This document shows positions 4,171 to 61,367 of a stretch of DNA of 64,000 nt, one piece after another. Source of the stretch: Ornithinimicrobium murale. Its GTDB lineage: Bacteria; Actinomycetota; Actinomycetes; Actinomycetales; Dermatophilaceae. Position 1 is the stretch's first letter, and each line of letters begins with the position of its first letter. The notes below the pieces were generated by a model. The model was not told where the DNA came from. It saw nothing but the letters and a program-made list of their open reading frames with translations, and searched no databases. The translations under genes and the position numbers were made by a program. The stretch covers positions 1 to 64,000 of the forward strand of contig NZ_QLVD01000023.1 in NCBI RefSeq assembly GCF_003352835.1, read 5' to 3'.

Positions 4171-6291
4171 ATGCCCGTGCCGACCCACCGACCAGATGTG
4201 CCCCCGCCGCTGGGCGTCACCCTCCACAACGGGACGGCGGACGTGTCCGTCCTGGCCACCCACGCCGAGGCCGTCGAGCTGTGTCTCTTCGATGACGACG
4301 GGGCCGAGCGGCGGATCCCGTTGTCCCGCAAGGCCTACGGCATCTGGTGGGACGTCGTGGAGGGAGTCCGACCCGGCCAGCGCTACGGCTTCCGGGTGCA
4401 CGGCCCCTGGTCACCCGAGCAGGGACACCGACACAACCCCGCCAAACTGCTCCTCGACCCGTATGCCGGGGCGATCGCCGGCGACGTCCGCTGGGGCCCG
4501 GAGGTGTTCGGCCACGTCGTGGACCAGGAGTGGAACGGCGACGGTGCCGTCCAAGACGACCGGGACAGTGCGGCATACGTCCCGCGGTCGGTGGTGGTCG
4601 ACCACGGCACCTTCGACTGGGGGCAGGACAGCTCCCCCTCGCGTCGGTGGACCGAGTCGGTGATCTATGAGGCCCACGTGCGCGGGCTGACGATGCGGCA
4701 TCCGGACGTGCCCGAGGAGATTCGGGGCACCTATGCGGCACTGGGGCACCCGGCCGTCCTGGAGCACCTGCGTGACCTGGGTGTCACGACCCTGGAGCTG
4801 CTGCCGATCCATGCGTTCACCCATGAGCCGCACCTGGTGCAGGGCGGGCTGGTCAACTACTGGGGCTACAACACGATGGGCTTCTTCGCGCCCCACGCGG
4901 GCTACGCGGCGGCCCAGGACCCGCAGGGAGTGGTGGACGAGCTCAAGGGTGCGATCAAGGCCCTGCACGGCGCCGGCATCGAGGTCGTGCTCGACGTTGT
5001 CTACAACCACACCTGCGAGCAGGGTGCCAACTCGGGCGCGACGCTGTCCTGGCGCGGGCTGGACAACGCGACCTACTACCGGCTGGACGAGCGCGGCCAC
5101 GACATCGACGTCACCGGCTGCGGCAACACCGTCGACCTGCGAGAGCCGATGGTCGCCAAGATGGTGCTGGACTCGTTGCGGCACTGGGTGACCGAGTTCC
5201 ACGTCGATGGGTTCCGCTTCGACCTGGCTCCGGCCCTCGCCCGCGGCCGAGACGACGCTTATGACCCGGACCACGCCTTCCACGTGGCGCTGCGCACCGA
5301 CCCGGTGCTGTCCCGGGTGATGCTCATTGCCGAGCCCTGGGACGTCGGTGTGCACGGGTGGCGCACCGGGCAGTTCCCGCCGCCGTTCGCCGAGTGGAAC
5401 GACCGCTTCCGCGACGCGGTGCGCACCTTCTGGCTGCCCGACACCGCGCGCGTTCTGCGCGGGGAGACCGGGCACGGCGCACGAGAGCTGGCGACCCGGC
5501 TTGCCGGGTCCGCCGACCTCTTTCACCGGGACGACCGGGGCCCGATCGCCTCCCTCAACTTCGTCACGGCCCACGACGGGTTCACGCTCGCCGACACCAC
5601 GGCATACGAGCAGAAACACAACGAGGCCAATCGGGAGGGGAACCGGGACGGCCACGGCGACAACCGCAGCTGGCACCACGGCGTCGAGGGGCCGACCGAC
5701 GACCTCGACATCCTCGCGGCGCGGCGTCGTTCGGTGCGCAATCTGATGGCGACCAACCTGCTGGCAGCAGGCGTGCCGATGATCACCGCCGGCGACGAGT
5801 TCGGTCGGACGCAGGGCGGGAACAACAACGCGTACTGCCAGGACAACGAGATCAGCTGGCTGGACTGGGCCGCCGCGGACGCCGACCTGGTCGCCACCAC
5901 GGCGCGGCTGCTGGAGCTGCGCCGGGCCCACCGGGTGCTGAGGCCACCGGAGTTCCAGACCTTCGAGGCTGTGCGCGGCCACGTGCGGCTGCGCTGGTTC
6001 GGGGTCGATGGCGAGATCCTGACCGAGGGGCAGTGGTCGGACCCGGCACTGCGCACCCTCGGGGCACTCTTTGATGGCCGCGACCTGGTGGACTCACCCG
6101 CCGACGCGGCAGACCTGGTGCTGGTCGTGGTCAACGGCGCGACCGAGGAGGTCACGGTGCGGTTCCCCGACACCGGCGGCGCCCACCCGTGGCGCCTGGA
6201 GTGGGACAGCACCTGGGAACGGCCGCAGGACCCCGGGCCCGTTGGCAAGGAACTGACGATGGGCCCCGTGTCCCTCGCCGTCCTGTCCTAA
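4171..6291 (+). CDS. glgX: Glycogen debranching enzyme GlgX
   Basis: 706-residue GH13 isoamylase-type debranching enzyme, normal GlgX length. It hydrolyses alpha-1,6 branch points of glycogen, mainly limit branches left by phosphorylase. The N-terminal CBM48-like domain (about 10-110) is followed by the TIM barrel. The four GH13 regions are visible: LDVVYNHT, GFRFDLAPAL with the nucleophile near Asp351, LIAEPWDVG with the acid/base near Glu388, and TAHDGF with Asp469. It is transcribed towards glgP, with the pathway genes glgE-treS-mak/glgB beyond. The stop codon TAA runs directly into repeat element E1. Leaderless start (TAGGCT 6 nt upstream). Confidence 0.97.
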   Translation: MPVPTHRPDVPPPLGVTLHNGTADVSVLATHAEAVELCLFDDDGAERRIPLSRKAYGIWWDVVEGVRPGQRYGFRVHGPWSPEQGHRHNPAKLLLDPYAGAIAGDVRWGPEVFGHVVDQEWNGDGAVQDDRDSAAYVPRSVVVDHGTFDWGQDSSPSRRWTESVIYEAHVRGLTMRHPDVPEEIRGTYAALGHPAVLEHLRDLGVTTLELLPIHAFTHEPHLVQGGLVNYWGYNTMGFFAPHAGYAAAQDPQGVVDELKGAIKALHGAGIEVVLDVVYNHTCEQGANSGATLSWRGLDNATYYRLDERGHDIDVTGCGNTVDLREPMVAKMVLDSLRHWVTEFHVDGFRFDLAPALARGRDDAYDPDHAFHVALRTDPVLSRVMLIAEPWDVGVHGWRTGQFPPPFAEWNDRFRDAVRTFWLPDTARVLRGETGHGARELATRLAGSADLFHRDDRGPIASLNFVTAHDGFTLADTTAYEQKHNEANREGNRDGHGDNRSWHHGVEGPTDDLDILAARRRSVRNLMATNLLAAGVPMITAGDEFGRTQGGNNNAYCQDNEISWLDWAAADADLVATTARLLELRRAHRVLRPPEFQTFEAVRGHVRLRWFGVDGEILTEGQWSDPALRTLGALFDGRDLVDSPADAADLVLVVVNGATEEVTVRFPDTGGAHPWRLEWDSTWERPQDPGPVGKELTMGPVSLAVLS

Positions 6292-6344
6292 TTTTGGGGA
6301 GGTTCGGACCGGCCCTCGCGCGATCTTGGGGAGGTTTGGACCGG
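6291..6344 (+). repeat. Stop-proximal repeat element E1 (two direct units)
   Basis: Two units of the dispersed family with core TTTTGGGGAGGTTCGGACC, at 6291-6312 and 6322-6344, separated by a CCCTCGCGCG-type spacer. The first unit shares its first base with the TAA stop of glgX. E1 faces E2 (7748-7803), which has the opposite orientation next to the glgP stop; together they bracket 1.4 kb. Confidence 0.85.
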
Positions 6345-6367
6345 TCCCGCACCCGTGGCATGGGCTG

Positions 6368-6697
6368 GTGCGGTACATCCGTGCCACGTGGCTGGATCCG
6401 GCTGCCCGCACCGAAAGGCATCTTCCTGGGGACGCCAACGACGCGCGCAGTCTGGCGCTGCGCGAGGCGGTGCGCTCCGAGGCAGAGGACCCGACCTTCA
6501 TCGGTGTCCAGGTGCCCGACGGAGCCGACCGAGCGGCATACAAGAATGCGCTCACCCGGGCCTGCGCATCGGCCGGCCTCCTGGCAGGTGACTTCATCGG
6601 GCAGCCAAGCCTGGGACCACCGGATGATGATTCGATCGACAGCACATGGCTGAGCACGGCGCTCGCTCAGGTGCAGGTGGCCGACGGCGACGAGTAG
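6368..6697 (+). CDS. Hypothetical protein in the E1-E2 insert
   Basis: 109-residue reading frame of unknown function starting with GTG at 6368 (VRYIRATWLDPAART); a TTG inside the repeat would extend it by 14 residues. No membrane segment or known motif was recognised. The composition is ordinary soluble protein (DPTFIGVQVPDGADRAAYKNALTRACASAG), with an acidic C-terminus. It is convergent with the nuclease-like gene, whose stop is 7 bp away, which supports it as a real gene filling the space. There is no clear ribosome-binding site. It might be an accessory partner of its neighbour; this is speculation from location only. Confidence 0.45.
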   Translation: MRYIRATWLDPAARTERHLPGDANDARSLALREAVRSEAEDPTFIGVQVPDGADRAAYKNALTRACASAGLLAGDFIGQPSLGPPDDDSIDSTWLSTALAQVQVADGDE

Positions 6698-6704
6698 CGG
6701 CGGG

Positions 6705-7628
6705 TCACCAGTCCTCGACCTCGGGGCAGATCCACGCATCGAGGCGGGCGTCTCTCCGGAGAGCCTCGGCATGCTGCTCGAGCAGGATCGCCTCGGTCCG
6801 GGGCCGGTCCTCGTTCCAGACCTCGGCGATCGTCATGTTCATACCCCGCAGCCGGGTCGCGCGCTGTTCGTCGAGCTGTCCCGCTAAGTCGACGCGATGC
6901 GGGAAGCCCTGGTACTCCCCCACCAGCCCCGTCTCTGGATCGCACAGGTCCACGCGTGCCACGAAGTGTCCGAGTCGGTCGTAGACCGGCTGGTTCACGA
7001 CGGGTGCGGGCAGCCCTGCTTGGATCCAGTGATAGCGCATCTCGCTCTCTGGCACCGACTCCGCCCGGGCGCTGATGTGCGGAAAGAGCGCGCGGACCTG
7101 GGCCAGCCGGTGCAGGCCACCCAGCGGGTCCAGGAAGTCTGCGAACGGGTCACGCTGGATCATCCCGAACCGCGCGCCCACGTCCAGCATGCCCAGGCGC
7201 GTGCCCGCGGTGGGCGCCCAGCGGGCCAGATCGAGCGTCGTGCGCGGCCCGCTCGTGACGAGGAACCCATCCACCTCCTCCCTGTGGGACTCGGGCACCC
7301 TGGACCGCCGGATGCGCAACCCACGCGTGTCATAGCTGCCGACGTCCGCTGGGACACTGAGGTCGATCGGCTTCAGCGTGCTTCCGTCCGTGGTGCCATC
7401 GAGGAACCTGGGGGTCACCCCGTGCACCACGGCGGCGGCCCAGCCCGACAGCACGGCACCGGCGGGGGCGCGCTCCATTGCGGCCCGCGCCCGCAGCAGC
7501 CGCAGGTCATCCGGCGGGTCTCCGAGCACCCGAACGCCCGGGACACCCGGAACCCGCAGCAGACTGTTCGTCGCCCGCTTGGACATTCCTCTGCTGCGCA
7601 GCTCTGCTGTTCTCGCAACCTCGAACAT
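6705..7628 (-). CDS. AbiEi/DUF559-like protein with putative nuclease-type C-terminus
   Basis: 307-residue protein of a family widespread in actinobacteria and often labelled AbiEi-type antitoxin or DUF559/endonuclease-like. The N-terminal part has a winged-helix-like start (VARTAELRSRGMSKRATNSLLR) and the AVLSGWAAAVVHGV segment typical of this group. The C-terminal part (about residues 215-290) has E in ESEMRYHW, RVDLCDPE and GEYQGFPHR, resembling the E/D...EYxG arrangement of Vsr/PD-(D/E)XK-related folds. Assignment is by pattern; nuclease activity is not shown. The ATG at 7628 has an excellent ribosome-binding site (GGGAGGTGG, 4 nt away), which decides the start. It sits between inverted repeats E1 and E2. 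Confidence 0.65.
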   Translation of the reverse strand: MFEVARTAELRSRGMSKRATNSLLRVPGVPGVRVLGDPPDDLRLLRARAAMERAPAGAVLSGWAAAVVHGVTPRFLDGTTDGSTLKPIDLSVPADVGSYDTRGLRIRRSRVPESHREEVDGFLVTSGPRTTLDLARWAPTAGTRLGMLDVGARFGMIQRDPFADFLDPLGGLHRLAQVRALFPHISARAESVPESEMRYHWIQAGLPAPVVNQPVYDRLGHFVARVDLCDPETGLVGEYQGFPHRVDLAGQLDEQRATRLRGMNMTIAEVWNEDRPRTEAILLEQHAEALRRDARLDAWICPEVEDW

Positions 7629-7747
7629 GTGCCACCTCCCGCCAGGCAGCATGGGGTGGGCACGGCAGATGGCGCCAGCACCCCGGAGGGTCCTGTGGAC
7701 AACGTCCAGTCGCCGGGGAGGCTGGGGACGACGGGTCCAGGGTTGCG

Positions 7748-7803
7748 GCGGTCCAAACCTCCCCAAAAAGGCGCGCGAGGCGGTCCAAACCTCCCCAAAA
7801 ATG
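7748..7803 (-). repeat. Stop-proximal repeat element E2 (two direct units, minus orientation)
   Basis: Units at 7748-7769 and 7781-7803 (33 bp pitch), reading away from the glgP stop codon: on the minus strand TAA is followed directly by CCCATTTTTGGGGAGG. The spacer has the GCGCGC core seen at E1 and E6. A weakly similar stretch in the opposite orientation lies at about 7711-7738. Confidence 0.85.
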
Positions 7804-7805
7804 GG

Positions 7806-10388
7806 TTAGGCGTTGGCGACCAGGCCGAGTTCGGCGTCGGAGGCCAGCAACGGGTGCGCGGGCAGCACGCGGACGGTCCAGCCGAGCGACCCGGTGCGGG
7901 TCAGCGCCAGCTCGCCGTCGAACCGGTGGCGACCACCGTCGTAGGACTCCACGGGCTGCAGCAGGCTGGTCTCGACCTCGGTCAACTCGTCGGTCTCCGA
8001 GGCCCGACCGAAGGCCACCTGCACGCTCACATCCTCCGGGGAGAGGTCGCCGAGCGCGAGGTAGGCGTGCACGCGCACCGTCTCGCCGATCTGCGGACTG
8101 TCGCTGACGCCCTCGGCCTCCACGTGCTCGACCCGCACCGACGGCCAGGCGGCCCGGAGCCGCTCGACCGCCGTCGCGAGGTCGCGGGCACCGGCGTAGT
8201 TGTCGTCGCGGACCGCCCAACCGGCCCGGGCCGCGGGCAGGTACAGCGCCCGGGTGTAGTCGCGCACCATCCGGTCGGCCATCACCTTGGGCCCGAGGGT
8301 TCCGAGGGTGTGTTGGATCATCTCCAGCCAGCGCGTGGGCAGCCCCGCCTCGTCGGTGTCATAGAAGGTCGGCACGACGCTGTTCTCCAGCAGGTCATAC
8401 AGCGCCGCGGCCTCCAGCGCGTCCCGCCGGTCGTCGTCGACGCCGTCAGCGGTCGGGATCGCCCAGCCGTTCTCACCGTCGAACCACTCGTCCCACCAGC
8501 CGTCCAGGATCGACAGGTTGAGAGCCCCGTTCAGGGCTGCCTTCATGCCGGAGGTGCCGCACGCCTCGAACGGGCGCAGCGGGTTGTTGAGCCACACGTC
8601 ACAGCCCGGGTAGAGACGCTGCGCCATCGCGATGTCGTAGTTGGGCAGGAAGACGATCCGGTGCCGCAGTGTGGGGTCGTCGGTGAAGCGCACCATCTCC
8701 TGGATCAGCCGCTTGCCGGTGTCGTCGGCCGGGTGGGCCTTGCCGGCGATGACCAGCTGCACCGGGCGGTCGGGGTCCAGGAGGATCTTGGCGAGACGCT
8801 CGGGGTCGCGGAGCATCAGGGTCAGCCGCTTGTATGTCGGCACTCGCCTCGCGAAGCCGATCGTCAGGATGTCTGGGTCCAGGACGTCATCGATCCACCC
8901 CAGCTCCGCTGGGGTGGATCCGCGGGTGCGCATCGACTTGCGCAGGCGGGTGCGGGTCTCGGTCACCAGCTGGTCGCGCATCTCGCGCTTGGTGGCCCAG
9001 ATCCGGTCGACGGGCACCGCGGCGATGCGGTCGAAGGCGGTGCCGTTGACGAGCGCCTCGGCACCCATGAACTCGGCTGCCAGCCCGAAGACCTTGCGGT
9101 CCACCCAGGTGCCGGCGTGCACCCCGTTGGTGATCGAGCCGATCGGCACCTCGGACTGGTCGAAGCCCGGCCACAGGCCCTGGAACATGCCGCGGCTGAC
9201 CTCGCCGTGCAGCACCGAGACACCGTTGGCCCGCTGTCCCAACCGGAGCCCCATCACCGCCATGTTGAAGACGTTGCTGTCCCCACCGTCGTAGGTCTCG
9301 GCGCCGAGCTCCAGGAGCTGTGGCAACGGCACCCCGGGCAGTTCGGAGCCGCCGCCGAAGTGCTGCGACATCTGGTCGACGCCGAAGCGGTCGATGCCCG
9401 CGGGCACCGGGGTGTGCGTGGTGAAGACCGTCGAGGCCCGCACGGCACGCAGCGCCTCCTCGAAGGACAGTCCGGCGCCGGAGACCAGCTCACTGATCCG
9501 CTCCAGCCCCTGGAAGCCCGCGTGGCCCTCGTTCATGTGATAGACGTCCGGCTCGGGGGCGCCGGTCAGTCGCGACCACAGCCGCAGCGCCCGCACGCCA
9601 CCGATCCCGAGCAGCATCTCCTGCTGCAGCCGCTGGTCGCCGCCCCCGCCGTAGAGACGGTCGGTCAGGTCGCGCTTGCTCGCGTCGTTGGTCTCCACGT
9701 CGGAGTCCAGCAGCAGCAGCGGCACGCGCCCGACCTGGGCCCGCCACACGTGGGCGTCCAGGTGGGCACCGCCGGGCATCGCCAGGGAGATCACCGCGGG
9801 ACTGCCGTCCTGCTCACGCAGCAGGGCCAGCGGCTGGTTGTCCGGGTCCAGCACCGGATAGGACTCCTGCTGCCAGCCCTCGGCGTTGAGCCGCTGCCGG
9901 AAGTAGCCGCTCTTGTAGAACAGGCCGATGCCGACGATCGGCACCCCCAGGTCGGAGGCGCTCTTGAGGTGGTCACCGGCCAGGATCCCCAGGCCGCCGG
10001 AGTACTGCGGCAGCGCGGCGGTGATCCCGAACTCCGGGGAGAAGTAGGCATAGGCCTGCCCGAACCCACCGGCCGCGGCACCCGCCTCGGCCTCTCGCTG
10101 ATACCAGCGCGGCTCGGTCAGATAGCGCTGCAGACCCTCGCCTGCCTCGCGGACCCGCTGCACGAAGGCAGGGTCGCCCGCCAGGCGCTCCAGCTCGTCG
10201 GGTGTCAGCGCGCTGAGCATGGCCAGCGGTTCGCGGTTGCCATCGGCCCACTTCTGCGGGTCGATGCTCTCGAAGAGGTCGAGCGTCGGCGGGTGCCATG
10301 ACCAGCGCAGATTGAGAGCGAGGTGGTGCAACGGGGACAGCGCGTCGGGGAGAACAGTGCGCACGTGGAGTCTGCGGATGGCCTTCAC
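7806..10388 (-). CDS. glgP: Alpha-glucan (glycogen) phosphorylase
   Basis: 860-residue GT35 phosphorylase of the bacterial/archaeal-type alpha-glucan phosphorylases (TIGR02094-like, with an N-terminal region about 100 residues long beginning VLPDALSPLHHLALNLRWSWHP). It releases glucose-1-phosphate from alpha-1,4-glucan ends. The pyridoxal-phosphate signature EACGTSGMKAALN is present with the PLP lysine at about Lys616; the EGHAGF histidine motif near residue 290 is also typical. GTG at 10388 gives VKAIRRLHVRTVLP, matching family N-termini, and is preferred over the longer frame. It is divergent from glgE (69 bp). The product feeds Pgm at 18125. Confidence 0.96.
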   Translation of the reverse strand: MKAIRRLHVRTVLPDALSPLHHLALNLRWSWHPPTLDLFESIDPQKWADGNREPLAMLSALTPDELERLAGDPAFVQRVREAGEGLQRYLTEPRWYQREAEAGAAAGGFGQAYAYFSPEFGITAALPQYSGGLGILAGDHLKSASDLGVPIVGIGLFYKSGYFRQRLNAEGWQQESYPVLDPDNQPLALLREQDGSPAVISLAMPGGAHLDAHVWRAQVGRVPLLLLDSDVETNDASKRDLTDRLYGGGGDQRLQQEMLLGIGGVRALRLWSRLTGAPEPDVYHMNEGHAGFQGLERISELVSGAGLSFEEALRAVRASTVFTTHTPVPAGIDRFGVDQMSQHFGGGSELPGVPLPQLLELGAETYDGGDSNVFNMAVMGLRLGQRANGVSVLHGEVSRGMFQGLWPGFDQSEVPIGSITNGVHAGTWVDRKVFGLAAEFMGAEALVNGTAFDRIAAVPVDRIWATKREMRDQLVTETRTRLRKSMRTRGSTPAELGWIDDVLDPDILTIGFARRVPTYKRLTLMLRDPERLAKILLDPDRPVQLVIAGKAHPADDTGKRLIQEMVRFTDDPTLRHRIVFLPNYDIAMAQRLYPGCDVWLNNPLRPFEACGTSGMKAALNGALNLSILDGWWDEWFDGENGWAIPTADGVDDDRRDALEAAALYDLLENSVVPTFYDTDEAGLPTRWLEMIQHTLGTLGPKVMADRMVRDYTRALYLPAARAGWAVRDDNYAGARDLATAVERLRAAWPSVRVEHVEAEGVSDSPQIGETVRVHAYLALGDLSPEDVSVQVAFGRASETDELTEVETSLLQPVESYDGGRHRFDGELALTRTGSLGWTVRVLPAHPLLASDAELGLVANA

Positions 10389-10457
10389 ACCGCACAGGGT
10401 ATGCCGTGGGGCCGGTGTGCCGTGCACGCGCACCTCCCGACCGGTAGCGTCGGGATC

Positions 10458-12518: not shown

Positions 12519-14224
<1,706 letters not shown>

Positions 14225-14225: not shown

Positions 14226-17200
14226 ATGCCCACGCTGACACCGTCGTTCGCGGAGTTCCTCCCCACCTGGGTCGCCTCCCAGCGCTGGTTCACCGGCAAG
14301 GGCCGCACCCCCTCGTTGCGCCGGGTCGGTGGCTACCGTCTGGAGGACCCGGCCGGCGAGGTCGGCATCGAGATCCACCTCGTGGTCGACGAGTCCGGCC
14401 CGGCGCCGGTGACCTACCACGTGCCACTCACCTACCGCAGCGCGGCGGACCCCGAGCTGCACACCGCCCTGGTGGCCACCACCGAGCACTCCGAGCTGGG
14501 CACCCGGTGGGTCTACGACGGCTGCCACGACCCCGTCTATGTCCAGGCCCTGGCCGACCTGATGCACTCCGGGGCCACCGTGAGCGGCGACGCGGACACC
14601 GAACTGACCGGCAGCGCCACGACGACCCGGTCGCAGGGGCCACGGCCGCTGGTGCGCCGCAGCGCCGTCCTGGTCGGCGAGCAGTCCAACACCTCGATCA
14701 TCGTGGAGACCGGCGAGCCGGGCCAGTCCGCGCCGGTCATCATCAAGGTCTTCCGGGTGCTGCAACCCGGCGAGAACCCCGACGTCGCGGTGCAGAGCGC
14801 GCTGGCCGAGGCCGGGAGCACGCTGGTCCCGCAGCCGGTCGGCTGGGTCACCGGCACGTGGCACGCGGGCGACACGCTCGCCCAGGGGCACCTGGCCTTC
14901 GCCCAGGAGTTCCTCCCCGGTGTGCAGGACGCCTGGCGCATCGCCCTGGTCGCCGCGCGGGACGACACCGACTTCACCTCCCGGGCCCGTGAGCTGGGCA
15001 CCGCTACGGCGCAGGTGCACGCCACCCTGCGCGAGGCCTTCGGCACCGAGGAGCTCACCCCGCAGCGGCGCGCGGGCCTGCTGGCGCGGTTGCGGGAGCG
15101 GCACGCGGAGGCCCGGGAGGCTGCCCCGGAGCTGCAGGAGTATGACGCGCAGGTCACCTCGGTCTTCGAGGCCGCCGAGTCCGCGGCCTGGCCGCCCCTG
15201 CAGCGCGTGCACGGGGACTACCACCTGGGTCAGGTGCTCGACGTCCCCGACCGGGGGTGGGTCCTGGTCGACTTCGAGGGCGAGCCGCTGCGACCGCTGG
15301 ACGAGCGCTCCCTGCCGGACGTCGCGCTGCGCGATGTCGCGGGCATGCTGCGCTCCTTCGACTACGCCGCGGGATCCCTGGCCCAGGACCACTCGGTCGA
15401 CCGGAGCCGCTGGTCCCGCGCGACCCGCGAGGCCTTCCTGGCGGGGTATGCCGAGGCCTCCGGAACGGACCTGTCCGCATCGGCCGCGGTGCTGGCTGCC
15501 CTGGAGCTGGACAAGGCGCTGTACGAGGTGGTCTACGAGACCCGCAACCGGCCCGGCTGGGTCGCCATCCCGGTGGCCGCGGTCCGCGAGCTGGTGGGAG
15601 ACTCCGTGACCAACGGGCCGGCTCACCCCCATTTTGAGGGAGGTTCGGATCGCGCTGTGACCATTTTTGGGGACGATCGGACCGGGTCTGACTCGCTCAG
15701 TCCGGTCGGCCCCGAGAGCGGGAGCGAGGGTGCGGGCGACGTCGGGAGCGAGCCAAACCTCCCCAAGAATGCGCATGAGGCGGTCCGAACCTCCCCAAAA
15801 ATTGGGGAGAGGCCGCTCGCGGAGGGCGAGGTGGAGCTGCTGCTGCGGGGGCTGCACCGCGACCCGCACTCCCTGCTGGGTGCCCACCCGCACGACGGCG
15901 GCATCACCATCCGGGCGCTCCGCCCCCTGGCCGAGTCGGTCACGGTCCTGCTCTCCGGGGGCGAGCGTCACCCGATGCGCCACGAGACCCACGGCATCTG
16001 GACGGCCGTGCTGCCGCGCACCGACATCCCCGACTACCGGCTCGAGGTCACCTGGGGCGACGGGGTGGGGCACCAGCAGGACGACCCCTACCGCTTCCTG
16101 CCCACCCTCGGCGAGATGGACCGGCACCTGATCGGCGAGGGCCGGCACGAGCAGCTCTGGACGGTGCTCGGCGCGCACCTGCGGACCTACGACGGCCCGC
16201 TGGGGCAGGTCCGGGGCACCAGCTTCGCCGTCTGGGCCCCCAACGCCCGAGGCGTGCACGTGGTCGGTGACTTCAACCAGTGGGACAACACGGCACACCC
16301 CATGCGGGTCCTCGGCGAGAGCGGGATCTGGGAGATCTTCCTGCCCGATGTCTGGGCCGGCAACCGCTACAAGTTCGACATCACCGGACCGGACGGGCAC
16401 CGGCGGCTCAAGGCCGACCCGATGGCCCGCGCCGCGGAGGTGCCGCCGAGCTCGGCCTCGATCGTCACCCACGACTGGCACGAGTGGGGTGACCAGGACT
16501 GGATGGAGCGACGCGCCAGCACGGACCCGCACACCGGGCCGATGAGCATCTACGAGGTGCACCTGGGCTCCTGGCGCCAGGGCGCCTCCTACCGCGACCT
16601 GGCCGAGCAACTGACCCGCTACGTCACCCAGATGGGATTCACCCATGTCGAGCTGATGCCGGTGATGCAGCACCCCTACGCCCCGTCCTGGGGCTACCAC
16701 GTGACCGGCTACTACGCCGCCGACTCCCGCTTCGGCTCCCCCGACGACCTGCGCTACCTGATCGACCGGCTGCACCAGGCCGGCATCGGGGTCATCCTGG
16801 ACTGGGTGCCCGGGCACTTCGCCACCGACCCTTGGGCACTGGCCCGGTTCGACGGCACCCCGCTCTACGAGCACCCGGACCCGCGCCGCGGCTGGCAGAA
16901 CGAGTGGGGCTCCTACATCTTTGACTTCGGTCGACCCCAGATCCGCAACTTCCTGGTGGCCAACGCCCTGTTCTGGCTGGAGGAGTTCCACGCCGACGGA
17001 CTGCGCGTGGACGGTGTCGCCTCGATGCTCTACCTCGACTACTCACGCAACGAGGGCGAGTGGCTGCCCAACAAGCACGGCGGCCGCGAGCACCTCGAGG
17101 CGGTGGCGCTGCTGCAGGAGACCAACGCCACCGCCTACCGCCGCAACCCCGGCGTGGTCATCATCGCCGAGGAGTCGACGTCCTGGCCGGGGGTGACGCG

Positions 17201-18122
17201 CCCGACCTCATCAGGCGGGCTGGGCTTCGGCTTCAAGTGGAACATGGGGTGGATGCACGACTCGCTGGACTACATCGCCCGGCAGCCGGTCCACCGGCAG
17301 TACCACCACCACCAGATGACCTTCTCGTTGATGTATGCCTTCTCCGAGCAGTTCGTGCTGCCGATCAGCCACGACGAGGTCGTCCACGGCAAGGGCTCGC
17401 TGCTGCGCAAGATGGGCGGCAGCGACCGGTGGCAGATGCTGGCCAGCCTCCGTGCCTACCTGGCGTTCATGTGGGCCCACCCCGGCAAGCAGCTGTTGTT
17501 CATGGGCCAGGAGTTCGCCCAGATCGCGGAGTGGGCCGACGGACGCAGCCTGGACTGGTGGCTGCTGGACCAGCCGGCGCACGTCGGCGTCCAGCACCTG
17601 GTGCGCGACCTGAACCTGACCTACCGGGAGACGGCCGCCCTGTGGCAGCTGGACCACCAGAGCTCGGGCTTCCAGTGGCTGGACGCCGACGACGCGCGGG
17701 GCAACACCTTCAGCTTCGTGCGCTACGGCACCGAGGACGAGGCCGGGCACCGCCCGGTGCTCGTCGCGGCCGCCAACTTCGCCGGGACCCCCCGTGAGGT
17801 CCGTCTCGGGGTCCCGCGACCCGGCCGCTGGCAGGAGGTGGTCAACACCGACGCCCACGCCTATGGCGGCTCCGGCGTCGGCAACCTGGGCTCGGTGACC
17901 GCCACCGACCAGCCGCACCAGGGTCAGCCCCACTCGCTGACCCTGACCCTGCCGCCGCTCGGGGTGCTCTGGCTCGTGCCCGAGGCGACCGGTGCGACGA
18001 CCACCGTCGATGCCCTGCCCACCGACAGGCCCGCGGAGGTGACCGCCCGGAAGCAGCCGGCTGACGGCATACCGGAGCAGTCACCTGCGGACCACACCGC
18101 CCCGTCCACCACCAAGGAGTAG
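14226..18122 (+). CDS. Fused maltokinase / 1,4-alpha-glucan branching enzyme (Mak-GlgB)
   Basis: One 1298-residue frame. Residues 1 to about 465 are maltokinase (Mak/Pep2), which makes maltose-1-phosphate: a maltokinase N-cap, then the kinase [10 protein letters not shown] (Asp331) and VDFEGEP (Asp349). Residues about 530-1260 are GlgB: N-terminal CBM48 modules, a GH13 barrel with [10 protein letters not shown] (nucleophile Asp929), IIAEEST (Glu982) and [11 protein letters not shown] (Asp1050), and a C-terminal beta domain. Residues about 468-528 are translated from repeat element E3, so the linker is repeat DNA in an open frame. An internal GTG at 15831 with GGAGG 5 nt upstream could also give free GlgB. 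In most actinobacteria these are separate genes. Confidence 0.93.
15629..15805. repeat. Repeat element E3 inside the mak-glgB frame (two plus two inverted units)
   Basis: Plus-orientation units at 15629-15652 and 15661-15684, a 64-bp GC-rich spacer, then inverted units at about 15753-15771 and 15781-15805. The pitch within each pair is 32 bp. The architecture is identical to E4 between convergent genes, but here the frame stays open and the element encodes about 60 residues. At other loci the first unit abuts a stop codon; here the equivalent position reads CAC/CCC and no stop is present. Confidence 0.85.
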
Positions 18123-32641: not shown

Positions 32642-32773
32642 CCCATTTTTGGGGAAGTTCGGACCGCTTCAAGCCCATTTCTGGGGAGGATCGGACCGCA
32701 CGCATCCACCGGGAGGTGGTCCAGACCTCCCCAAAATCATGCCGGGCGTGTTCCAAACCTCCCCAAGAATGGG
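32642..32773. repeat. Repeat element E4 between convergent stops (two plus two inverted units)
   Basis: Plus units at 32642-32666 and 32674-32698; inverted units at about 32718-32740 and 32751-32773. The element fills exactly the gap between the TGA of the AI-2E-family gene (32639-32641) and the TGA of the convergent membrane gene (32774-32776): both stops are followed directly by CCCATT-C/T-TTGGGG. This is the cleanest example of the family. Transcripts from either side could fold into a long hairpin, so bidirectional termination is one reading. Confidence 0.9.
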
Positions 32774-33226
32774 TCAGGCGACGGGGACCCAGCGGGACAG
32801 CTCGACGAGCGCGATGTGCCGCGCCTGCGGTGTGCCGGTCAGCGCGACGATCCCCCAGCCGTTCCTCAGGTGGACCGTCAGCATCGTGGGATGCGACGGA
32901 TCCGGCGTCCCGACTCCGCTGATCTCCTCGTAGGGCAGATGCTTGGGGCCCCGCAGGGCGCGCGTGTACCGCAGGCCGTCGGGGGCGACGGTCAGGGTGC
33001 CGCGCACGGCATACTGCGCGAGCGCGAGCCACGGCAGGCCCGAGCGCACGACCGAGATCTGCCGGGTCGGGATCGTGGCAACCGGCCCCTGCGGCCCGGG
33101 CACCACCGTCGGCTCCGGAGTCGGTTGGCGGTGATAGCGCAGGATGAAGAACCCGACCCCGGCGATGAAGGCCCCCACGGCCACGAGGATGCCCACCACC
33201 AGCAGGACCAGGGCGGTGTCACTCAT
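32774..33226 (-). CDS. Small membrane-anchored hypothetical protein
   Basis: 150-residue protein with one N-terminal transmembrane helix (residues about 5-30, LVLLVVGILVAVGAFIAGVGF), a proline-rich stalk (HRQPTPEPTVVPGPQGP) and a C-terminal domain of about 90 residues with strands VRGTLTVAPDGLRYTRAL and HPTMLTVHLRNGWGIVALTG, resembling a PH-like (bacterial pleckstrin homology) fold. That resemblance is structural guesswork. The ATG at 33226 overlaps the stop of the upstream zinc-ribbon-like gene by 4 nt. The stop abuts repeat E4. Confidence 0.75.
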   Translation of the reverse strand: MSDTALVLLVVGILVAVGAFIAGVGFFILRYHRQPTPEPTVVPGPQGPVATIPTRQISVVRSGLPWLALAQYAVRGTLTVAPDGLRYTRALRGPKHLPYEEISGVGTPDPSHPTMLTVHLRNGWGIVALTGTPQARHIALVELSRWVPVA

Positions 33227-35927: not shown

Positions 35928-35984
35928 CCCATTCTTGGGGAGGTTTGGAACGCCCTGTGCGCATTTTTGGGGAGGATCGGATCG
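35928..35984 (+). repeat. Stop-proximal repeat element E5 (two direct units)
   Basis: Units at 35928-35952 and 35962-35984. The first follows the nucS TGA with no gap. The spacer CCCTGTGCG is of the same type as in E1/E6. No inverted partner is nearby; the ggt-family ATG is 24 bp further on. Confidence 0.85.
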
Positions 35985-51943: not shown

Positions 51944-51968
51944 CTCTGTGTCCGGCTCACACCGGGCC

Positions 51969-52908: not shown

Positions 52909-52997
52909 CGGTCCGAGCCTCCCCACAAAGGCGCGCAGGGCGGTCCGATCCTCCCCAAAAAAGCGCGCAGGGCGGTCCGAACCTCCCCAAAAATTGG
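52909..52997 (-). repeat. Stop-proximal repeat element E6 (three direct units)
   Basis: Units at 52909-52929, 52941-52962 and 52973-52997, pitch exactly 32 bp, oriented away from the prfA stop (minus-strand TGA followed directly by CCAATTTTTGGGG). A decayed fourth unit is visible at about 52877-52897. The spacers are GCGCGCAGGG. It separates prfA from prmC, normally adjacent or overlapping genes. Confidence 0.88.
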
Positions 52998-54089: not shown

Positions 54090-54157
54090 ACCTCACCATT
54101 TTCATCACGGTCTCGGGACCCGACCCACAGCGTCGCAGCGGGCTCCACGGGTCGGGC

Positions 54158-54202: not shown

Positions 54203-54211
54203 TGCAAAGTT

Positions 54212-54430: not shown

Positions 54431-54588
54431 GGTGTCTCCTCACAGGTGGCGAGTTCCCCGGGTCGGCGCGCGGACGCGCGTCGTGAACCGGAGGGCCAAG
54501 GGATGATTCTGCCAGACACAACAGCATCGCCACAAAATCTGTTCCCGCCCGGGAGGCTCCGCTGACCCCCGAGGCCTACGCTGGCCCC

Positions 54589-56732: not shown

Positions 56733-56757
56733 GAAAGGACTCCTTGCCGAACGTGAC

Positions 56758-56816
56758 TTGCATGATGCAACTACCGTAGTACCCAAACTTTCATCACGCA
56801 AGCAACTTGCTACGAT
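56758..56816. promoter_or_regulatory. Divergent promoter with two HxlR-operator-like palindromes
   Basis: TTGCATGATGCAA (56758-56770) is a perfect 13-bp palindrome near the SRPBCC promoter. GCAAG-CAA-CTTGC (56798-56810) is a perfect inverted repeat directly in front of TACGAT (56811-56816), the -10 of the hxlR-type gene. Both share the half-site TTGC/GCAA, so a single regulator, probably the divergent HxlR protein, could bind both. Confidence 0.6.
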
Positions 56817-56823
56817 CGGCACC

Positions 56824-57318: not shown

Positions 57319-57322
57319 CACA

Positions 57323-57360
57323 CGTGTGGCCCGGCTCCCCGAGGGGAACCGGGCCACACG
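57323..57360. terminator. Bidirectional terminator between hxlR-type gene and rho
   Basis: CGTGTGGCCCGG (57323-57334) pairs perfectly with CCGGGCCACACG (57349-57360); the inner CCCC/GGGG extends the stem. It starts 5 bp after the regulator stop and 40 bp from the convergent rho stop. Confidence 0.8.
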
Positions 57361-57399
57361 GCATACGAGATCAGGCGGCCGGAGGCCGTCCGGGGGTGC

Positions 57400-59508
57400 T
57401 CAGTCCTCGTCGTCGAGCTTGACCGAGGAGGTCTGCTGCACCTGCACGAGGAACTCGTGGTTGGACTTGGTCTTTCGGAGCCGGTCCAGCAGCAGCTCGA
57501 CGGCCTGCTGGGAGTCGAGCGCCGAGAGCACGCGGCGCAGCTTCCACATGATCTTCAGCTCCTCGGAGCCCATCAGGATCTCCTCGCGGCGCGTGCCGGA
57601 GGGGTTCACGTCGATGGCCGGGAAGATGCGGCGGTCCGCCAGCTGGCGGGACAGGCGCAGCTCCATGTTGCCGGTGCCCTTGAACTCCTCGAAGATGACC
57701 TCGTCCATCTTGGAGCCGGTCTCCACCAGGGCGGTCGCCAGGATGGTCAGCGAGCCGCCGTGCTCGATGTTGCGGGCGGCACCGAAGAACCGCTTCGGCG
57801 GGTAGAGCGCGCTGGAGTCGACACCACCGGACAGGATGCGCCCGCTGGCCGGGGCGGCCAGGTTGTAGGCGCGACCCAGGCGGGTGATCGAGTCGAGCAG
57901 GACGACGACGTCGCCGCCCATCTCGACCAGACGCTTGGCCCGCTCGATGGCCAGCTCGGCCACGGTGGTGTGGTCGTCGGCCGGACGGTCGAAGGTGGAG
58001 GCGATGACCTCACCCTTGACCGTGCGCTGCATGTCGGTGACCTCCTCGGGGCGCTCGTCCACCAGGACGATCATCAGGTGCGCCTCGGGGTTGTTCTGCG
58101 TGATCGCGTTCGCGATCGACTGCAGGATGAGGGTCTTGCCCGCCTTGGGCGGGGAGACGATCAGGCCACGCTGTCCCTTGCCGATCGGGCTGACCAGGTC
58201 GATCATCCGCGTCGTCAGGTTCTTCTGCTCGGTCTCCAGCCGCAGACGGTCCTGGGGGTAGAGCGGGGTCAGCTTGGAGAACTCCGCACGGCCCTTGGCC
58301 TCCTCCGGGGACTGGCCGTTGACAGTGTCGAGACGGACCAGTGCGTTGTACTTCTGGCGGTCGCCGCGCCCCCCGGAGTGCTGCTGCTGGCCGTCGGCCT
58401 TGATCGCACCGGTGACCGCGTCACCCTTGCGCAGACCGTTCTTGCGGACCATGCCCATCGGGACGTAGACATCGCTCGGGCCGGGCAGGTAACCGGTGGT
58501 GCGGATGAAGCCGTAGTTGTCGAGGATGTCCAGGACACCGGCGACGGGGACGAGCACGTCCTCCTCGCTGTAGCTGGTCTCCTGCTCGTCGGCGTAGTTG
58601 TCGTTGTCGCCCCGGTTACGACCGCGCTTGCGGTCCCGGCCCCGCTGACGGCTGCGGCGGCGGCCGCGGCCACCGTCCTCGTCGTCGAAGCGGTTGCCGC
58701 GGTTGTTCTGGCCGCCCTGGCGGTTGTCACCCTGGCGGTTGTCACCCTGGCGGTTGTCGTCGCCGCCCTGCCGGTCCTGCTGACCACCGCGGTTGTCCTG
58801 GCGGTTGTCGTCACGGCCACCCTGCTGGTTGCCGCCCTGGCGGTTGTCGTCACGGCCACCCTGCTGGTTGCCGCCCTGGCGGTTGTCCTGCTGGCCACCG
58901 CGGTTGTCCTGCTGACGGTTGTCCTGGCGGTTGTCCTCACCGCCGCCCTGCTGGTTGCCGCCCTGGCGGTTGTCCTGCTGACGGTTGTCGCGCTGGCCAC
59001 GGCCCTGACGGCCACTGTCCCGGGACTCGTCCCGGCCACCATCGCGGGACTCGTCGCGCGGCTCACGGTCCTGGCGGGGCTGCTGGCTGTCAGAGTCGCT
59101 CGGAGCGTCCTGCGCGGGGGCGCTGTCGTCCTTGCCCGCGGCGCGTGACTGCGGCGCACCGGCCGCAGCTGCGACACGGCGCGAGCGGCGCGGCGCCCGC
59201 TGCTCGGGCTCCGTGGCGCCTGTCCCCTCAGCGGCCTGGGGAGCGGTGGAACGGTCGTTGGTCTGAGGCGTCTCGTCGCGCGCCGCGGCCGGAGCGGCCT
59301 TCTCGGCGGCTGGCGCAGTCTTGCTGGTCGCGGTCGTGTTGCCGCCCTCCCGCCTGGCCCTGATCGCTTCGACGAGGTCCGCCTTACGCATCTTGGGAGA
59401 CACGGTGATGCCCATGCTCCCGGCCAGGGACTGCAGCTCAGCAACGCGCATCGAGCTCAAAGAGCCCCCGGAGCGGCTCGGTGCAGCGGTTTCGGTGGTG
59501 TCTGTCAC
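57400..59508 (-). CDS. rho: Transcription termination factor Rho with large low-complexity insertion
   Basis: 702-residue Rho (E. coli 419). The N-terminus (MRVAELQSLAGSMGITVSPKMRKADLVEAI) is the Rho N domain, with an Ala/Pro stretch after it. Residues about 140-300 are an Arg/Asn/Gln/Gly/Asp insert (GGNQQGGRDDNRQ units), then RRRSRQRGRDRKRGRNR. RNA-binding and ATPase domains follow: GYLPGPSDVYVPMGMVRKNGLRKGDAV, Walker A LIVSPPKAGKT (about 450), MIVLVDERPEEVTDM, GGVDSSALYPPKRFFGAARN (the Q/R-loop region). Actinobacterial Rho proteins carry such inserts, which raise RNA affinity. GTG 59508 is chosen because upstream codons lack Rho homology. Confidence 0.96.
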   Translation of the reverse strand: MTDTTETAAPSRSGGSLSSMRVAELQSLAGSMGITVSPKMRKADLVEAIRARREGGNTTATSKTAPAAEKAAPAAARDETPQTNDRSTAPQAAEGTGATEPEQRAPRRSRRVAAAAGAPQSRAAGKDDSAPAQDAPSDSDSQQPRQDREPRDESRDGGRDESRDSGRQGRGQRDNRQQDNRQGGNQQGGGEDNRQDNRQQDNRGGQQDNRQGGNQQGGRDDNRQGGNQQGGRDDNRQDNRGGQQDRQGGDDNRQGDNRQGDNRQGGQNNRGNRFDDEDGGRGRRRSRQRGRDRKRGRNRGDNDNYADEQETSYSEEDVLVPVAGVLDILDNYGFIRTTGYLPGPSDVYVPMGMVRKNGLRKGDAVTGAIKADGQQQHSGGRGDRQKYNALVRLDTVNGQSPEEAKGRAEFSKLTPLYPQDRLRLETEQKNLTTRMIDLVSPIGKGQRGLIVSPPKAGKTLILQSIANAITQNNPEAHLMIVLVDERPEEVTDMQRTVKGEVIASTFDRPADDHTTVAELAIERAKRLVEMGGDVVVLLDSITRLGRAYNLAAPASGRILSGGVDSSALYPPKRFFGAARNIEHGGSLTILATALVETGSKMDEVIFEEFKGTGNMELRLSRQLADRRIFPAIDVNPSGTRREEILMGSEELKIMWKLRRVLSALDSQQAVELLLDRLRKTKSNHEFLVQVQQTSSVKLDDED

Positions 59509-59854
59509 GAAGGTTTCCTTCTCCCTCGGAGGGGCCCGCACCATGCGTGGCCCAGGGGTAACAAGGGTGATCCGGCTCTTGCCGGCCCGAGTGGGAATCA
59601 CCGACCAGTGCGAGGCGATGTGACCACGCGAGAAGCGCGTGGCTGCACCACATGCATGGTGGTGGGATCACTACACGAGAACCACGGGCTGATCCCGCAG
59701 CGTCATTCGCGAGTGTGTCTTCACGGTATCACTTGTTGGTCCACACCTCGAATACGCGCTCCGACACACCGGTGGCAGGCCACCCCGGGCACACCTGTGG
59801 CAGGCCCGCCGGGGACATCGGACTGGCGGGAGCGTCGGGGCTCCGGTCCGTGGC
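59509..59854. other. Rho upstream region (346 bp, no gene)
   Basis: No convincing frame on either strand. Near the aldehyde dehydrogenase stop are two imperfect direct repeats of about 24 bp (GTGGCAGGCC-type, at about 59769 and 59797). In the middle GATACC on the minus strand (about 59725-59730) could be the rho -10. The remainder would be a leader of roughly 200 nt, consistent with known autoregulation of rho through its leader in other bacteria. Confidence 0.4.
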
Positions 59855-61309
59855 TCAGCCGAGCTTGACGTTGACCTGCTTGATCTGGGTGAACCCTTCC
59901 AGCATGCCCTCCAGGGAGAGCTCGCGACCGATGCCGCTGGTCTTCATGCCACCGTAGGACTGGCCGACGACCTGACCGCCGCCCTGGTTGACCTGGACCC
60001 AGCCGGAGTCGATCTGGTGGGCCATTGTCAGCGCGCGGTCCAGATTCTTGGAGAAGACGAACGCCGCCAGGCCGTAGTGCGAGTCGTTGGCCATCGACAC
60101 GACCTCTTCCTGGCCCTTCCACGGGATGACCGCCAGGACGGGCCCAAAGATCTCCTCCTGCGCGATCCGCCAGTCATTGGAGACCTGGGTGAGGATCATC
60201 GGCGCGTGGTAGAACCCAGGCGGACCGACCTGCAGGGCCGGCCGACCGTCATACGCCACCTCGACGCCCTCCTGAGCGAGGCCGTCCTCGATGTAGCCCT
60301 GCACCCGGTCCCACTGCTTGGCGTTGATGATGCAACCGATGTCGGAGGCCTCCTCGCGGGGGTCGCCCACGACCAGCTGCTCGGTGCGGGCGACCAGCTT
60401 GGCGAGGAACTCATCGTGCACCTCCTCGTGCAGGAACAGGCGTGAGCCGGTGGTGCAGCTCTGGCTCTGCCGGGCGAACCGACTCGCCAGGAGCACCTGC
60501 TCGACGACCTCGTCGGTGCACGAGTCGGCGTCCACGATGCAGGGCGACTTGCCGCCGAGCTCCAGGGAGGTGTGCGCCAGCCGGGCCCCGGCCTTGGCTG
60601 CCACCTGGTGCCCGACGAGCGTCGACCCGGTGAAGGAGACCTTGTCCACGTCCTCGTGCTGGACGAGGGCCTCGCCGATCTCGGCGCCGTAGCCGGTGAC
60701 GACATTGAGCACACCGGGTGGCAGGTGCTCGGCGCAGATCCGGGCGAGCTCCAGGATGGTCAGCGGTGCGTCCTCGGCAGCCTTGAGCACCATGGTGTTG
60801 CCGGCCACGAGGGCGCCGGGCACCTTGAACCCGGCAATCATCAGCGGGCTGTTCCACGGCAGGATGCCGGCGACGACCCCGAGGGGCTGGCGCCTGGTGT
60901 ACTGCAGCTGGCCGTCGGCGGTCGGCAGCACGGTGCCCTTCACCTCGCCCGCGACTCCCGCCATATAACGGAAGCACGCGACCAGGTTGAGCGCCTCCGG
61001 GCGGGCCTGGGTCCGGATCGCGTTGCCGGTGTCCAGGGCCGTCAGCGTGGCCAGGTCCTCGACGTGCTCCTCGAGGGAGTCCGCGATCCGCAGGAGCGCC
61101 CGCTGGCGCTCGGTGAAGGACAACGCGGCCCAAGCCGGGAACGCAGCCCGGGCTGCCCTCACCGCTCGATCGGCGTCCTCGGCCCGGGCACGCGGCGTCG
61201 TGGCGATCACCACGTTGCGGTCGGTCGGTGTGATCACCTCGAGGGTCTCACCGGATGCCGCAGGCACCCACTCGCCGCCAATGTGCATCAACTGCTCGTC
61301 CACGTCCAC
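59855..61309 (-). CDS. Aldehyde dehydrogenase family protein
   Basis: About 484-residue NAD(P)-dependent ALDH. Oxyanion Asn in GILPWNSPLMIAGFK, cofactor segment VSFTGSTLVGHQVA, general base Glu in SLELGGKSPCIV, catalytic Cys in SQSCTTGSRLF, and the EEIFGPVLAVIPW and SGIGRELSLEGM segments are in order. Substrate unknown; the AMxG/betaine-aldehyde-like group is possible. It occupies the place of thrC-thrB between hom and rho. The start is ambiguous: GTG 61309 (used), GTG 61303 or ATG 61288; none has a good ribosome-binding site, and the first abuts repeat E7. Upstream readthrough of the frame translates E7 and is rejected. Confidence 0.9.
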   Translation of the reverse strand: MDVDEQLMHIGGEWVPAASGETLEVITPTDRNVVIATTPRARAEDADRAVRAARAAFPAWAALSFTERQRALLRIADSLEEHVEDLATLTALDTGNAIRTQARPEALNLVACFRYMAGVAGEVKGTVLPTADGQLQYTRRQPLGVVAGILPWNSPLMIAGFKVPGALVAGNTMVLKAAEDAPLTILELARICAEHLPPGVLNVVTGYGAEIGEALVQHEDVDKVSFTGSTLVGHQVAAKAGARLAHTSLELGGKSPCIVDADSCTDEVVEQVLLASRFARQSQSCTTGSRLFLHEEVHDEFLAKLVARTEQLVVGDPREEASDIGCIINAKQWDRVQGYIEDGLAQEGVEVAYDGRPALQVGPPGFYHAPMILTQVSNDWRIAQEEIFGPVLAVIPWKGQEEVVSMANDSHYGLAAFVFSKNLDRALTMAHQIDSGWVQVNQGGGQVVGQSYGGMKTSGIGRELSLEGMLEGFTQIKQVNVKLG

Positions 61310-61310
61310 T

Positions 61311-61367
61311 CCAATTCTTGGGGAGGTTTGGACCGCTCCATCACCATTTTTGGGGAGGATCGGCACG
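61311..61367 (+). repeat. Repeat element E7 (two direct units) between hom and the aldehyde dehydrogenase
   Basis: Units at 61311-61335 and 61344-61367 (33 bp pitch), oriented from the aldehyde dehydrogenase start towards the hom stop (9 bp away), i.e. antisense to both genes. This is the only element not reading away from a stop codon; it resembles one half of an inverted pair whose partner is missing. Confidence 0.85.

What the first reader, a model, noticed from the sequence alone, without database searches (positions are those of the whole stretch)
6291..61367. Dispersed stop-codon-anchored repeat family with 32-bp phasing (E1-E7)
Seven loci (6291-6344, 7748-7803, 15629-15805, 32642-32773, 35928-35984, 52909-52997, 61311-61367) carry about 19 copies of a roughly 24-bp unit with core TTTTGGGGAGGTTCGGACC. 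Three regularities are visible. (a) At five loci the first unit starts 0-1 nt after a stop codon (glgX, glgP, the AI-2E-family gene and its convergent neighbour, nucS, prfA) and reads away from the gene. (b) Units within a locus are spaced 32 +/- 1 bp, about three helical turns, with a GCGCG-type spacer. (c) Two loci have two direct plus two inverted units. This is neither a known IS nor a CRISPR. It could be a bidirectional terminator, a REP/BIME-like mobile palindrome, or the binding array of a DNA/RNA-binding protein. I know of no description.
Basis: partly seen in the sequence, partly recalled or inferred. Interest (0 to 1): 0.88.

Follow-up and report, generated by a model that had tools for sequence, protein, structure and literature searches.

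The report
Gene-border tandem repeats with species dialects
A group of related bacteria carries dozens of short DNA repeat arrays parked flush against the edges of genes; the addresses are often kept from species to species while the repeat sequence is rewritten, so something in the cell may read it, but what reads it is unknown.

Summary
The window (genus Ornithinimicrobium) holds 19 units at 7 loci; all 10 within-run spacings are exactly 32 bp. The held genome has 106 units against 0 for the control pattern. The family is rich in one clade of 7 genomes, with one array in a near outgroup. The dominant core differs between species: TTTTGGGGAGGTTCGGACC (I), TTTTCGTAGNGGTTTTGC (II) or AAAAGATAAAGGTTTCGTA (III). 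They share a pitch of 31-32 bp, mostly two or more units, and a CCCA-like head close to a coding boundary: a stop in about half the cases, a start/ribosome-binding site in most others. In the Mak-GlgB fusion a pair lies in frame inside the coding linker in all six clade genomes whose linker could be read. Many arrays keep their gene boundary in several species but change dialect. Between the two type-I genomes, cores are conserved above neutral spacers. RNA structure is not shared by the dialects; RAYT, Rfam, phage and viral searches were negative. Terminator and REP/RAYT readings are not supported. Best reading: a MIRU-like tandem-repeat family whose cores are read, as DNA, by an unidentified factor. 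A purely selfish repeat is a serious rival.

The parts
6287..6343 (+). Array E1, 2 units (cores 6292-6310, 6324-6342), stop codon TAA of glgX immediately before the core
   Evidence: orthologous arrays in G008 (type I) and G015 (type II)
7749..7805 (-). Array E2, 2 units (cores 7782-7800, 7750-7768), after glgP stop, TAA CCCAT head
   Evidence: orthologues in G008, G015 and G010
15628..15684 (+). Array E3 forward pair (cores 15633-15651, 15665-15683) inside the Mak-GlgB ORF linker
   Evidence: seen only in G000 and G008 among the linkers read
15749..15805 (-). Array E3 inverse pair (cores 15782-15800, 15750-15768), in frame in the Mak-GlgB linker, head flush with the GlgB start region
   Evidence: present in all six clade genomes with a readable linker
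14226..18122 (+). Maltokinase-GlgB fusion ORF that contains E3
   Evidence: Mak_N_cap, APH, GlgB_N, CBM_48, alpha-amylase domains
32642..32698 (+). Array E4 forward pair (cores 32647-32665, 32679-32697), TGA CCCAT after AI-2E transporter gene
32717..32773 (-). Array E4 inverse pair (cores 32750-32768, 32718-32736), TGA CCCAT after the convergent gene 32774-33226
35928..35984 (+). Array E5, 2 units (cores 35933-35951, 35965-35983), TGA CCCAT after nucS; not seen within 300 nt of nucS in nine other genus genomes
52909..52997 (-). Array E6, 3 units (cores 52974-52992, 52942-52960, 52910-52928), TGA CCAAT after prfA
61311..61367 (+). Array E7, 2 units (cores 61316-61334, 61348-61366), head at the start/RBS of gene 59855-61309 (-), tail at stop of gene 61377-62366 (-)
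   Evidence: single-unit orthologue in G015

Best explanation
A clade-specific interspersed tandem-repeat family of Ornithinimicrobium. Each array is mostly two or more 32-bp units (20-bp core plus 12-bp spacer), lying in DNA that is otherwise little constrained (gene gaps and variable protein linkers), with its CCCA-like head against constrained coding sequence. Shown: placement, orientation rule, clade restriction, different dialects at shared addresses, gain at nucS in one lineage, and core conservation above neutral between two genomes. Inferred: the cores are recognised as double-stranded DNA by an unidentified, changing sequence-specific factor that binds neighbouring units; arrays spread MIRU-style to places where they do least harm (the head tolerates a stop codon in one direction and a GGGG Shine-Dalgarno in the other), and the recognised sequence is rewritten per species as the factor or the dominant subfamily changes.
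For: 106 type-I units in the host genome, control 0; type II 128 in G023, type III 55 in G010, control hits at most 1. Pitch 32 in 218 of 248 type I/II intervals. Runs with two or more units: 166 of 185 for types I and II. Head nearer to a coding boundary than tail in 95 of 130 single-orientation arrays (medians 15 and 81.5 nt, p=7e-8; within 10 nt: 60 heads, 14 tails). 36 ortholog groups with 84 of 185 heads, 18 of them labelled with types I and II both (two of the 18 doubtful). Orthologous G000/G008 cores 0.87-0.89 identical, spacers 0.71-0.73, non-coding flanks 0.73; a neutral simulation with a like detection filter gives cores of 0.76-0.78 and did not reach 0.869 in 2000 draws. Spacers keep locus memory (0.725 against 0.471 between loci), so gene conversion does not easily explain core conservation between these two. 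RNA structure is not shared by dialects, and one pair is translated in frame, so DNA rather than a terminator hairpin is the likely target.
Against: No binding factor was found; none was sought genome-wide. Dialect does not follow the PrfA tree (G008 groups with G023/G019 but shares G000's dialect), which fits differential amplification of subfamilies as well as factor co-evolution. The spacers show no more indel resistance than flanks (1.8 indels expected; 2 departures in 20 intervals, one perhaps an artefact), so phasing is not proved to be selected. Dialect III has 12 of 26 spacings at 31 and 9 of 25 runs single by its own consensus, though several of those are followed by a TTTT-type second unit. 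Single-unit runs are commoner in G015 and G006 (9 of 42 and 4 of 14). Arrays can be absent in relatives (nucS in 9 of 9 others; 14 of 32 G008 arrays had no G000 partner, most of them because no G000 locus was at hand), so single arrays are dispensable.
Confidence: 0.45

Rival explanations
1. A purely selfish MIRU-like mobile or expanding repeat with no host function, copied by an unknown enzyme into gene borders and variable linkers because insertions elsewhere are lethal; dialects are amplified subfamilies (a 'library' as in satellite DNA).
For: Array after the nucS stop in the host genome only, of 10 compared; arrays lie between prfA and prmC, which abut or nearly abut in many relatives (by eye); depletion from divergent gaps (16 of 157, against 118 of 405 gaps of 70 bp or more in the same loci) fits selection against promoter hits; several dialects coexist in G015, G006, G019; dialect not congruent with the PrfA tree; MIRUs are described as apparently mobile, inserting at start codons (PMC12548453 passage).
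Against: Cores at shared loci are more conserved than neutral spacers between G000 and G008; the same addresses are kept in G015 above chance under an assumed 6500 boundaries (9 against 0.3 expected); no Y1/RAYT and no clade-linked reverse transcriptase.
Confidence: 0.33
2. RNA-level 3' element: terminator, mRNA 3'-end stabiliser or stop-proximal translation brake, as proposed for E. coli REPs within 15 nt of stops.
For: Of heads classed at stops, 63 of 82 have the stop within -9 to +10 nt of the core; 22 of 25 type-III heads face stops; convergent gaps are enriched (48 of 157 against 66 of 405); two type-I units can pair with each other in RNA, with z -3.04 at one locus (L057), and the inverted 2+2 locus of the window folds with z -6.52; type-I-like arrays of G015 have mean z -1.61 (9 arrays); REPs fewer than 16 nt from a stop lower translation (PMC12306157 passage).
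Against: 62 of 144 classed type I/II runs outside ORFs face starts and are antisense to that gene; dialects II and III do not fold better than shuffles (mean z +0.17 in G023, -0.53 in G015, +0.94 in G010); type I means are only -0.73 (G000) and -0.38 (G008); in-frame copy inside an ORF.
Confidence: 0.12
3. DNA-uptake-like or recombination signal with species dialects, as the Neisseriaceae DUS.
For: Species-linked dialects with a small shared core resemble DUS dialects (PMC3630211 passages).
Against: Tens to about 130 copies per genome against thousands for the DUS counts in the passages read; tandem 32-bp arrays; gene-border anchoring.
Confidence: 0.04

Closest known systems
MIRU (mycobacterial interspersed repetitive units)
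   Same: Short repeats dispersed in an actinobacterial genome, mostly between genes, placed at translational boundaries with little harm to the neighbours (passages PMC12548453, PMC2734929, PMC3635867).
   Different: 32-bp rather than 40-100-bp unit; no coupling ORF noted; both orientations with the head toward the gene; dialects at shared addresses. No MIRU sequence was compared.
REP/BIME with RAYT
   Same: Dispersed, extragenic, many copies close after stop codons; inverted pairs at convergent genes.
   Different: Direct tandem units rather than palindromes; Y1_Tnp found in 0 of 31 genus genomes.
DNA uptake sequence dialects (Neisseriaceae)
   Same: Variants of one motif over a clade, linked to species (passages PMC3630211).
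   Different: Tens to about 130 copies instead of thousands, tandem arrays, gene-border anchoring; no receptor known.
Satellite-DNA 'library' evolution in eukaryotes (recalled)
   Same: Related species keep related repeat subfamilies and amplify different ones.
   Different: Runs of 1-8 units at gene borders in a small bacterial genome.

Membership tests
REP/BIME (RAYT-mobilised) | Unit is an imperfect palindrome / hairpin | tested here: not met
   Direct repeats; two-unit stretches do not fold clearly better than shuffles across dialects (single loci vary). The type-I core is quasi-palindromic; types II and III are not (by eye)
REP/BIME (RAYT-mobilised) | REP-associated Y1 transposase in the genome | tested here: not met
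   PF01797: 0 of 31 genus genomes, while 5 of 14 control genomes ring; the host genome is 75% complete
MIRU | Repeats dispersed between genes at start/stop boundaries | tested here: met
MIRU | MIRU sequence | not tested
   no MIRU sequence was compared; unit length differs (32 against 40-100 bp in the passage)
MIRU | Small ORF in the element coupled to the neighbouring gene | not tested
   not searched systematically; none noted
CRISPR | Unique spacers between identical repeats | tested here: not met
   12-bp spacers are alike within arrays of three or more units (means 0.68-0.91 identical)
CRISPR | cas genes next to the array | not tested
   no cas search was made
IS end / MITE | Terminal inverted repeats and target duplications around the element | not tested
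   no systematic test; no inverted ends noted at single-orientation arrays
Intrinsic terminator | Conserved RNA hairpin, sense to the upstream gene | tested here: not met
Known RNA family (Rfam 15) | Match above gathering score | tested here: not met
   0 matches in the window; relatives' loci not scanned
DNA uptake sequence | Very high copy number | tested here: not met
   106 (I, G000), 128 (II, G023), 55 (III, G010) units
DNA uptake sequence | Cognate uptake receptor | not tested
   not searched

The most novel reading that the evidence does not exclude
A bacterial reader-and-repeat system in which a fast-changing DNA-binding factor and several dozen phased, mostly two-unit arrays at gene borders co-evolve, so that species rewrite the set into their own dialect while keeping many of the addresses.
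Probability: 0.3. Interest if true: 0.82.

Novelty: new variant of a known kind. Interest (0 to 1): 0.62.

Why it matters
If the cores are read by a factor, this is a chromosome-wide set of sites whose motif was replaced more than once within one genus while many positions stayed: a directly testable case of motif-factor co-evolution, or of library-like repeat turnover, in bacteria. If selfish, it is a clear example of repeats settling in the least harmful places of a compact genome, including a coding linker. The in-frame GlgB linker copy argues that the arrays are not simply terminators.

Tried and rejected
RAYT/Y1 transposase: 0 of 31 genomes. Reverse transcriptase as mobiliser: PF00078 in 7 of 31 genomes but in only one (G006) of the seven array genomes. 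RNA hairpin between tandem units: looked attractive in type I but not shared by types II and III; rejected as the conserved feature. Selected 32-bp pitch: flanks show so few gap openings (9 per 336 mismatches) that the departures in the spacers are expected; not shown. Phage/viral origin: no match of the 201-bp window stretch in phages and none of the type-I two-unit pattern in viral contigs; types II and III were not searched there, and plasmids were not searched. Replichore polarity: the strand lists look balanced by eye; not computed. The Prevotella hit is an unrelated-looking CCTCCCC...GGGGAGG sequence. A ~350-bp element next to some units is a separate, rarer repeat.

Literature: the searches showed no paper on these repeats in the part of each list that was displayed (for example 10 of 44 papers, 15 of 104); passages only were read from PMC3635867, PMC3630211, PMC12306157, PMC2734929 and PMC12548453. 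The library model of satellite DNA is recalled.

Limits: genes were called with my own codon-usage finder trained on the window, so start positions are approximate and some classes are wrong (for instance L068 is classed 'start' although TGA precedes its head). Loci were chosen because they hold units, so the context null comes from the same loci. For G015, G019, G023, G006 and G010 only part of the units was fetched, and type III was not included in the ortholog grouping. Ortholog heads were matched by flank similarity with up to 60 nt difference in offset; heads with flanks of 150 nt or less were dropped. Of the 18 groups labelled mixed, one (L058/L108) is a labelling artefact and one (L085/L138/L106) rests on a weak single unit. 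The 6500-boundary figure behind the chance estimate is an assumption. The simulation takes present units as ancestors.
Full report
Observation. The core TTTTGGGGAGGTTCGGACC occurs 18 times in the window at up to 3 mismatches, with 0.01 expected from shuffles, and 19 times at up to 5. All ten same-strand spacings in the window are 32 bp. The host genome (3.29 Mb held, 75% complete) has 106 such units, 49 forward and 57 reverse; the reversed control pattern has none.

Distribution. At up to 2 mismatches the unit is in 5 of 117 genomes searched, the host's own included, all of the same genus, and in 0 of 86 genomes outside it. At up to 3 mismatches 8 of 31 genus genomes have a hit, the host included, but single hits are at the level of the control. 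A scan of named GTDB genomes with a two-unit type-I pattern gave 22 stretches: 21 in Ornithinimicrobium cavernae KCTC 49018 and Ornithinimicrobium sp. F0845, and one Prevotella sequence that looks unrelated. Contig lengths identify these two with G008 and G019. The same pattern gave nothing in viral contigs, a window stretch nothing in phages, and the window nothing in Rfam.

Dialects. G023, G019, G015 and G006 hold a second core, TTTTCGTAGNGGTTTTGC (128, 65, 35 and 24 hits at up to 3 mismatches; at most 7 in any other of 31 genomes; control at most 1). G010 holds a third, AAAAGATAAAGGTTTCGTA (55 hits; at most 5 in each of the other eight genomes searched; control 0). An exact two-unit type-II pattern is in 4 of 186 family genomes, all of this genus. 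By eye the dialects share GGTYYNG, an A/T run before it, a C-rich spacer often ending in GCA, and the pitch. Species differ in the dominant dialect rather than each having one alone: G000 and G008 are mostly I, G023 mostly II, G010 mostly III, G015, G006 and G019 mixed. The seven genomes rich in units form one group in a PrfA tree (99/99); the near outgroup G013 has one two-unit type-II array (read by eye). Within the clade dialect does not follow the tree: G008 groups with G023 and G019 but shares the dialect of G000.

Anatomy. In the host genome 51 runs and in G008 35 runs were classed. Heads are mostly preceded by CCCAT, CCAAT or CCTAA; inner units by GCGCAT-like spacer ends. Where the head faces a stop (27 of 51 in G000, 15 of 35 in G008) the core starts exactly 5 nt after it in 15 and 9 cases and 0 nt after it in 6 and 2. 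In types II and III the gene may instead end on a stop inside the first unit (CGTAG, GATAA): 6 of 34 stop-facing heads and 10 of 22 have the called stop at -9 or -6. Over the sets, 63 of 82 stop-facing heads have the stop within -9 to +10 nt of the core. Where the head faces a start (20 of 51 and 13 of 35) the array is antisense to that gene, and by eye the GGGG complementary to the head often lies at or next to its Shine-Dalgarno region. The second set, G023, G015 and G019, follows the same pattern: 67 runs, 34 at stops, 24 at starts, 9 in ORFs, pitch 32 in 79 of 88 intervals, two or more units in 61 of 67. In G010, 22 of 25 type-III runs face stops and 3 starts; spacings are 32 (14) or 31 (12), and 9 of 25 count as single by the type-III consensus. 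Over types I and II in seven genomes 218 of 248 spacings are 32 and 236 are 30-33; 166 of 185 runs have two or more units.

Orientation rule. Of 130 single-orientation arrays with both neighbours called, the head is nearer a coding boundary than the tail in 95 (sign test 7e-8); 60 heads but 14 tails lie within 10 nt. The rule fails in divergent gaps (head nearer in 4 of 16). Arrays lie in co-directional gaps 93 times, convergent 48, divergent 16, against 221, 66 and 118 for all gaps of at least 70 bp in the same loci.

Addresses kept, language changed. Grouping heads by the coding sequence they abut gave 36 groups with 84 of 185 heads; 12 groups have three or more genomes, and 18 are labelled with both types I and II, of which one is a labelling artefact and one weak. 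Examples: glgX and glgP stops and the GlgB linker (types I, I, II in G000, G008, G015). At the AI-2E stop G000 has type I, G010 type III, G015 type II and G008 a further variant (by eye), while G006, G019 and three outgroups show none and G023 could not be read. At nucS only G000 shows an array; nine other genomes show none in the 300 nt printed, which is most simply a gain in the host's lineage. Between prfA and prmC all seven clade genomes carry arrays, in different positions and orientations; none is seen in 22 other genomes (G022 readable for only 37 nt; G009 not readable; G003 not fetched), and there the two genes often abut or nearly so (by eye).

A coding copy. The 1298-aa ORF 14226-18122 is a maltokinase-GlgB fusion. 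In the six clade genomes whose linker could be read, two inverse units lie in the same frame and end flush at the GlgB start region (peptides of the form [16 protein letters not shown]), with no stop in the stretch printed; the match in G006 as a whole is reported with one TGA elsewhere. G023's contig begins inside the last unit and agrees. Linkers of G013, G014 and G002 show no units. A transcription block here would cut the gene, so the arrays are unlikely to be strong terminators.

Selection. For 18 orthologous G000/G008 arrays (20 head pairs) core identity is 0.87-0.89, spacer 0.71-0.73, non-coding flank 0.73, coding flank 0.84. A simulation that mutates units neutrally and applies a like detection filter gives 0.76-0.78 for cores when spacers are at 0.72-0.74; the observed 0.869 was not reached in 2000 draws. 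Spacers at orthologous loci resemble each other more than spacers of different loci (0.725 against 0.471), cores somewhat more (0.892 against 0.856). So between these two genomes arrays appear to have descended in place with the core held. Between G000 or G008 and G015 no locus memory remains in core or spacer (6 and 9 pairs). Against over-reading: spacer length changes are no rarer than expected from flanks, so the pitch may be kept by descent alone.

RNA structure. Two type-I units can pair with each other (z from +0.97 to -3.04 over seven direct arrays, -6.52 for the inverted window locus), but over 47 G000 and 36 G008 arrays the mean z is -0.73 and -0.38, G015 type I -1.61 (9), G006 +0.04, G019 +0.45, G023 type II +0.17, G015 type II -0.53, G010 type III +0.94. 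Structure is not the shared feature.

Interpretation. Core constraint without shared structure, tolerance of transcription and translation, and dialect change at kept addresses point to recognition as DNA by a sequence-specific factor; this factor is inferred, not found. Placement resembles MIRUs (passages in PMC12548453, PMC2734929), and dialects resemble DUS (passages in PMC3630211), but neither membership is met in full. A selfish repeat spreading to harmless borders is the main rival and may also be the origin of a set that was later put to use.

Noticed in passing
L063:6549-6911, L065:2975-3443, L064:3062-3401, L073:2834-2979 (host genome): A separate ~350-bp dispersed non-coding element (GCCTGCTCGTGTGTCATGCGG... 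with CTCTGCA/TGCAGAG parts) downstream of some units; 13 matches in the host genome, the query and short pieces included, and one weak match in each of four other genus genomes.
   Followed up: partly
L355 (G010), Mak-GlgB linker: An in-frame coding tandem repeat (RAHGVATSDPH, three times, about 33 bp) near the array in the same linker (by eye).
   Followed up: no
L256 (G019) after the AI-2E gene; L247 (G015) after nucS: Long inverted-repeat-like elements (GACGTCTTCGAGCGCC...; TCTTGGAGCCGGAAAT...) at sites where other species have 32-bp arrays (by eye).
   Followed up: no
L152 (G013): A lone two-unit type-II array in a near outgroup, suggesting an older origin or transfer.
   Followed up: partly
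L059:3036-3078 and L081:2977-3018 (host genome): Convergent arrays whose innermost units abut tail to tail and make a perfect or near-perfect palindrome of about 40 bp.
   Followed up: no
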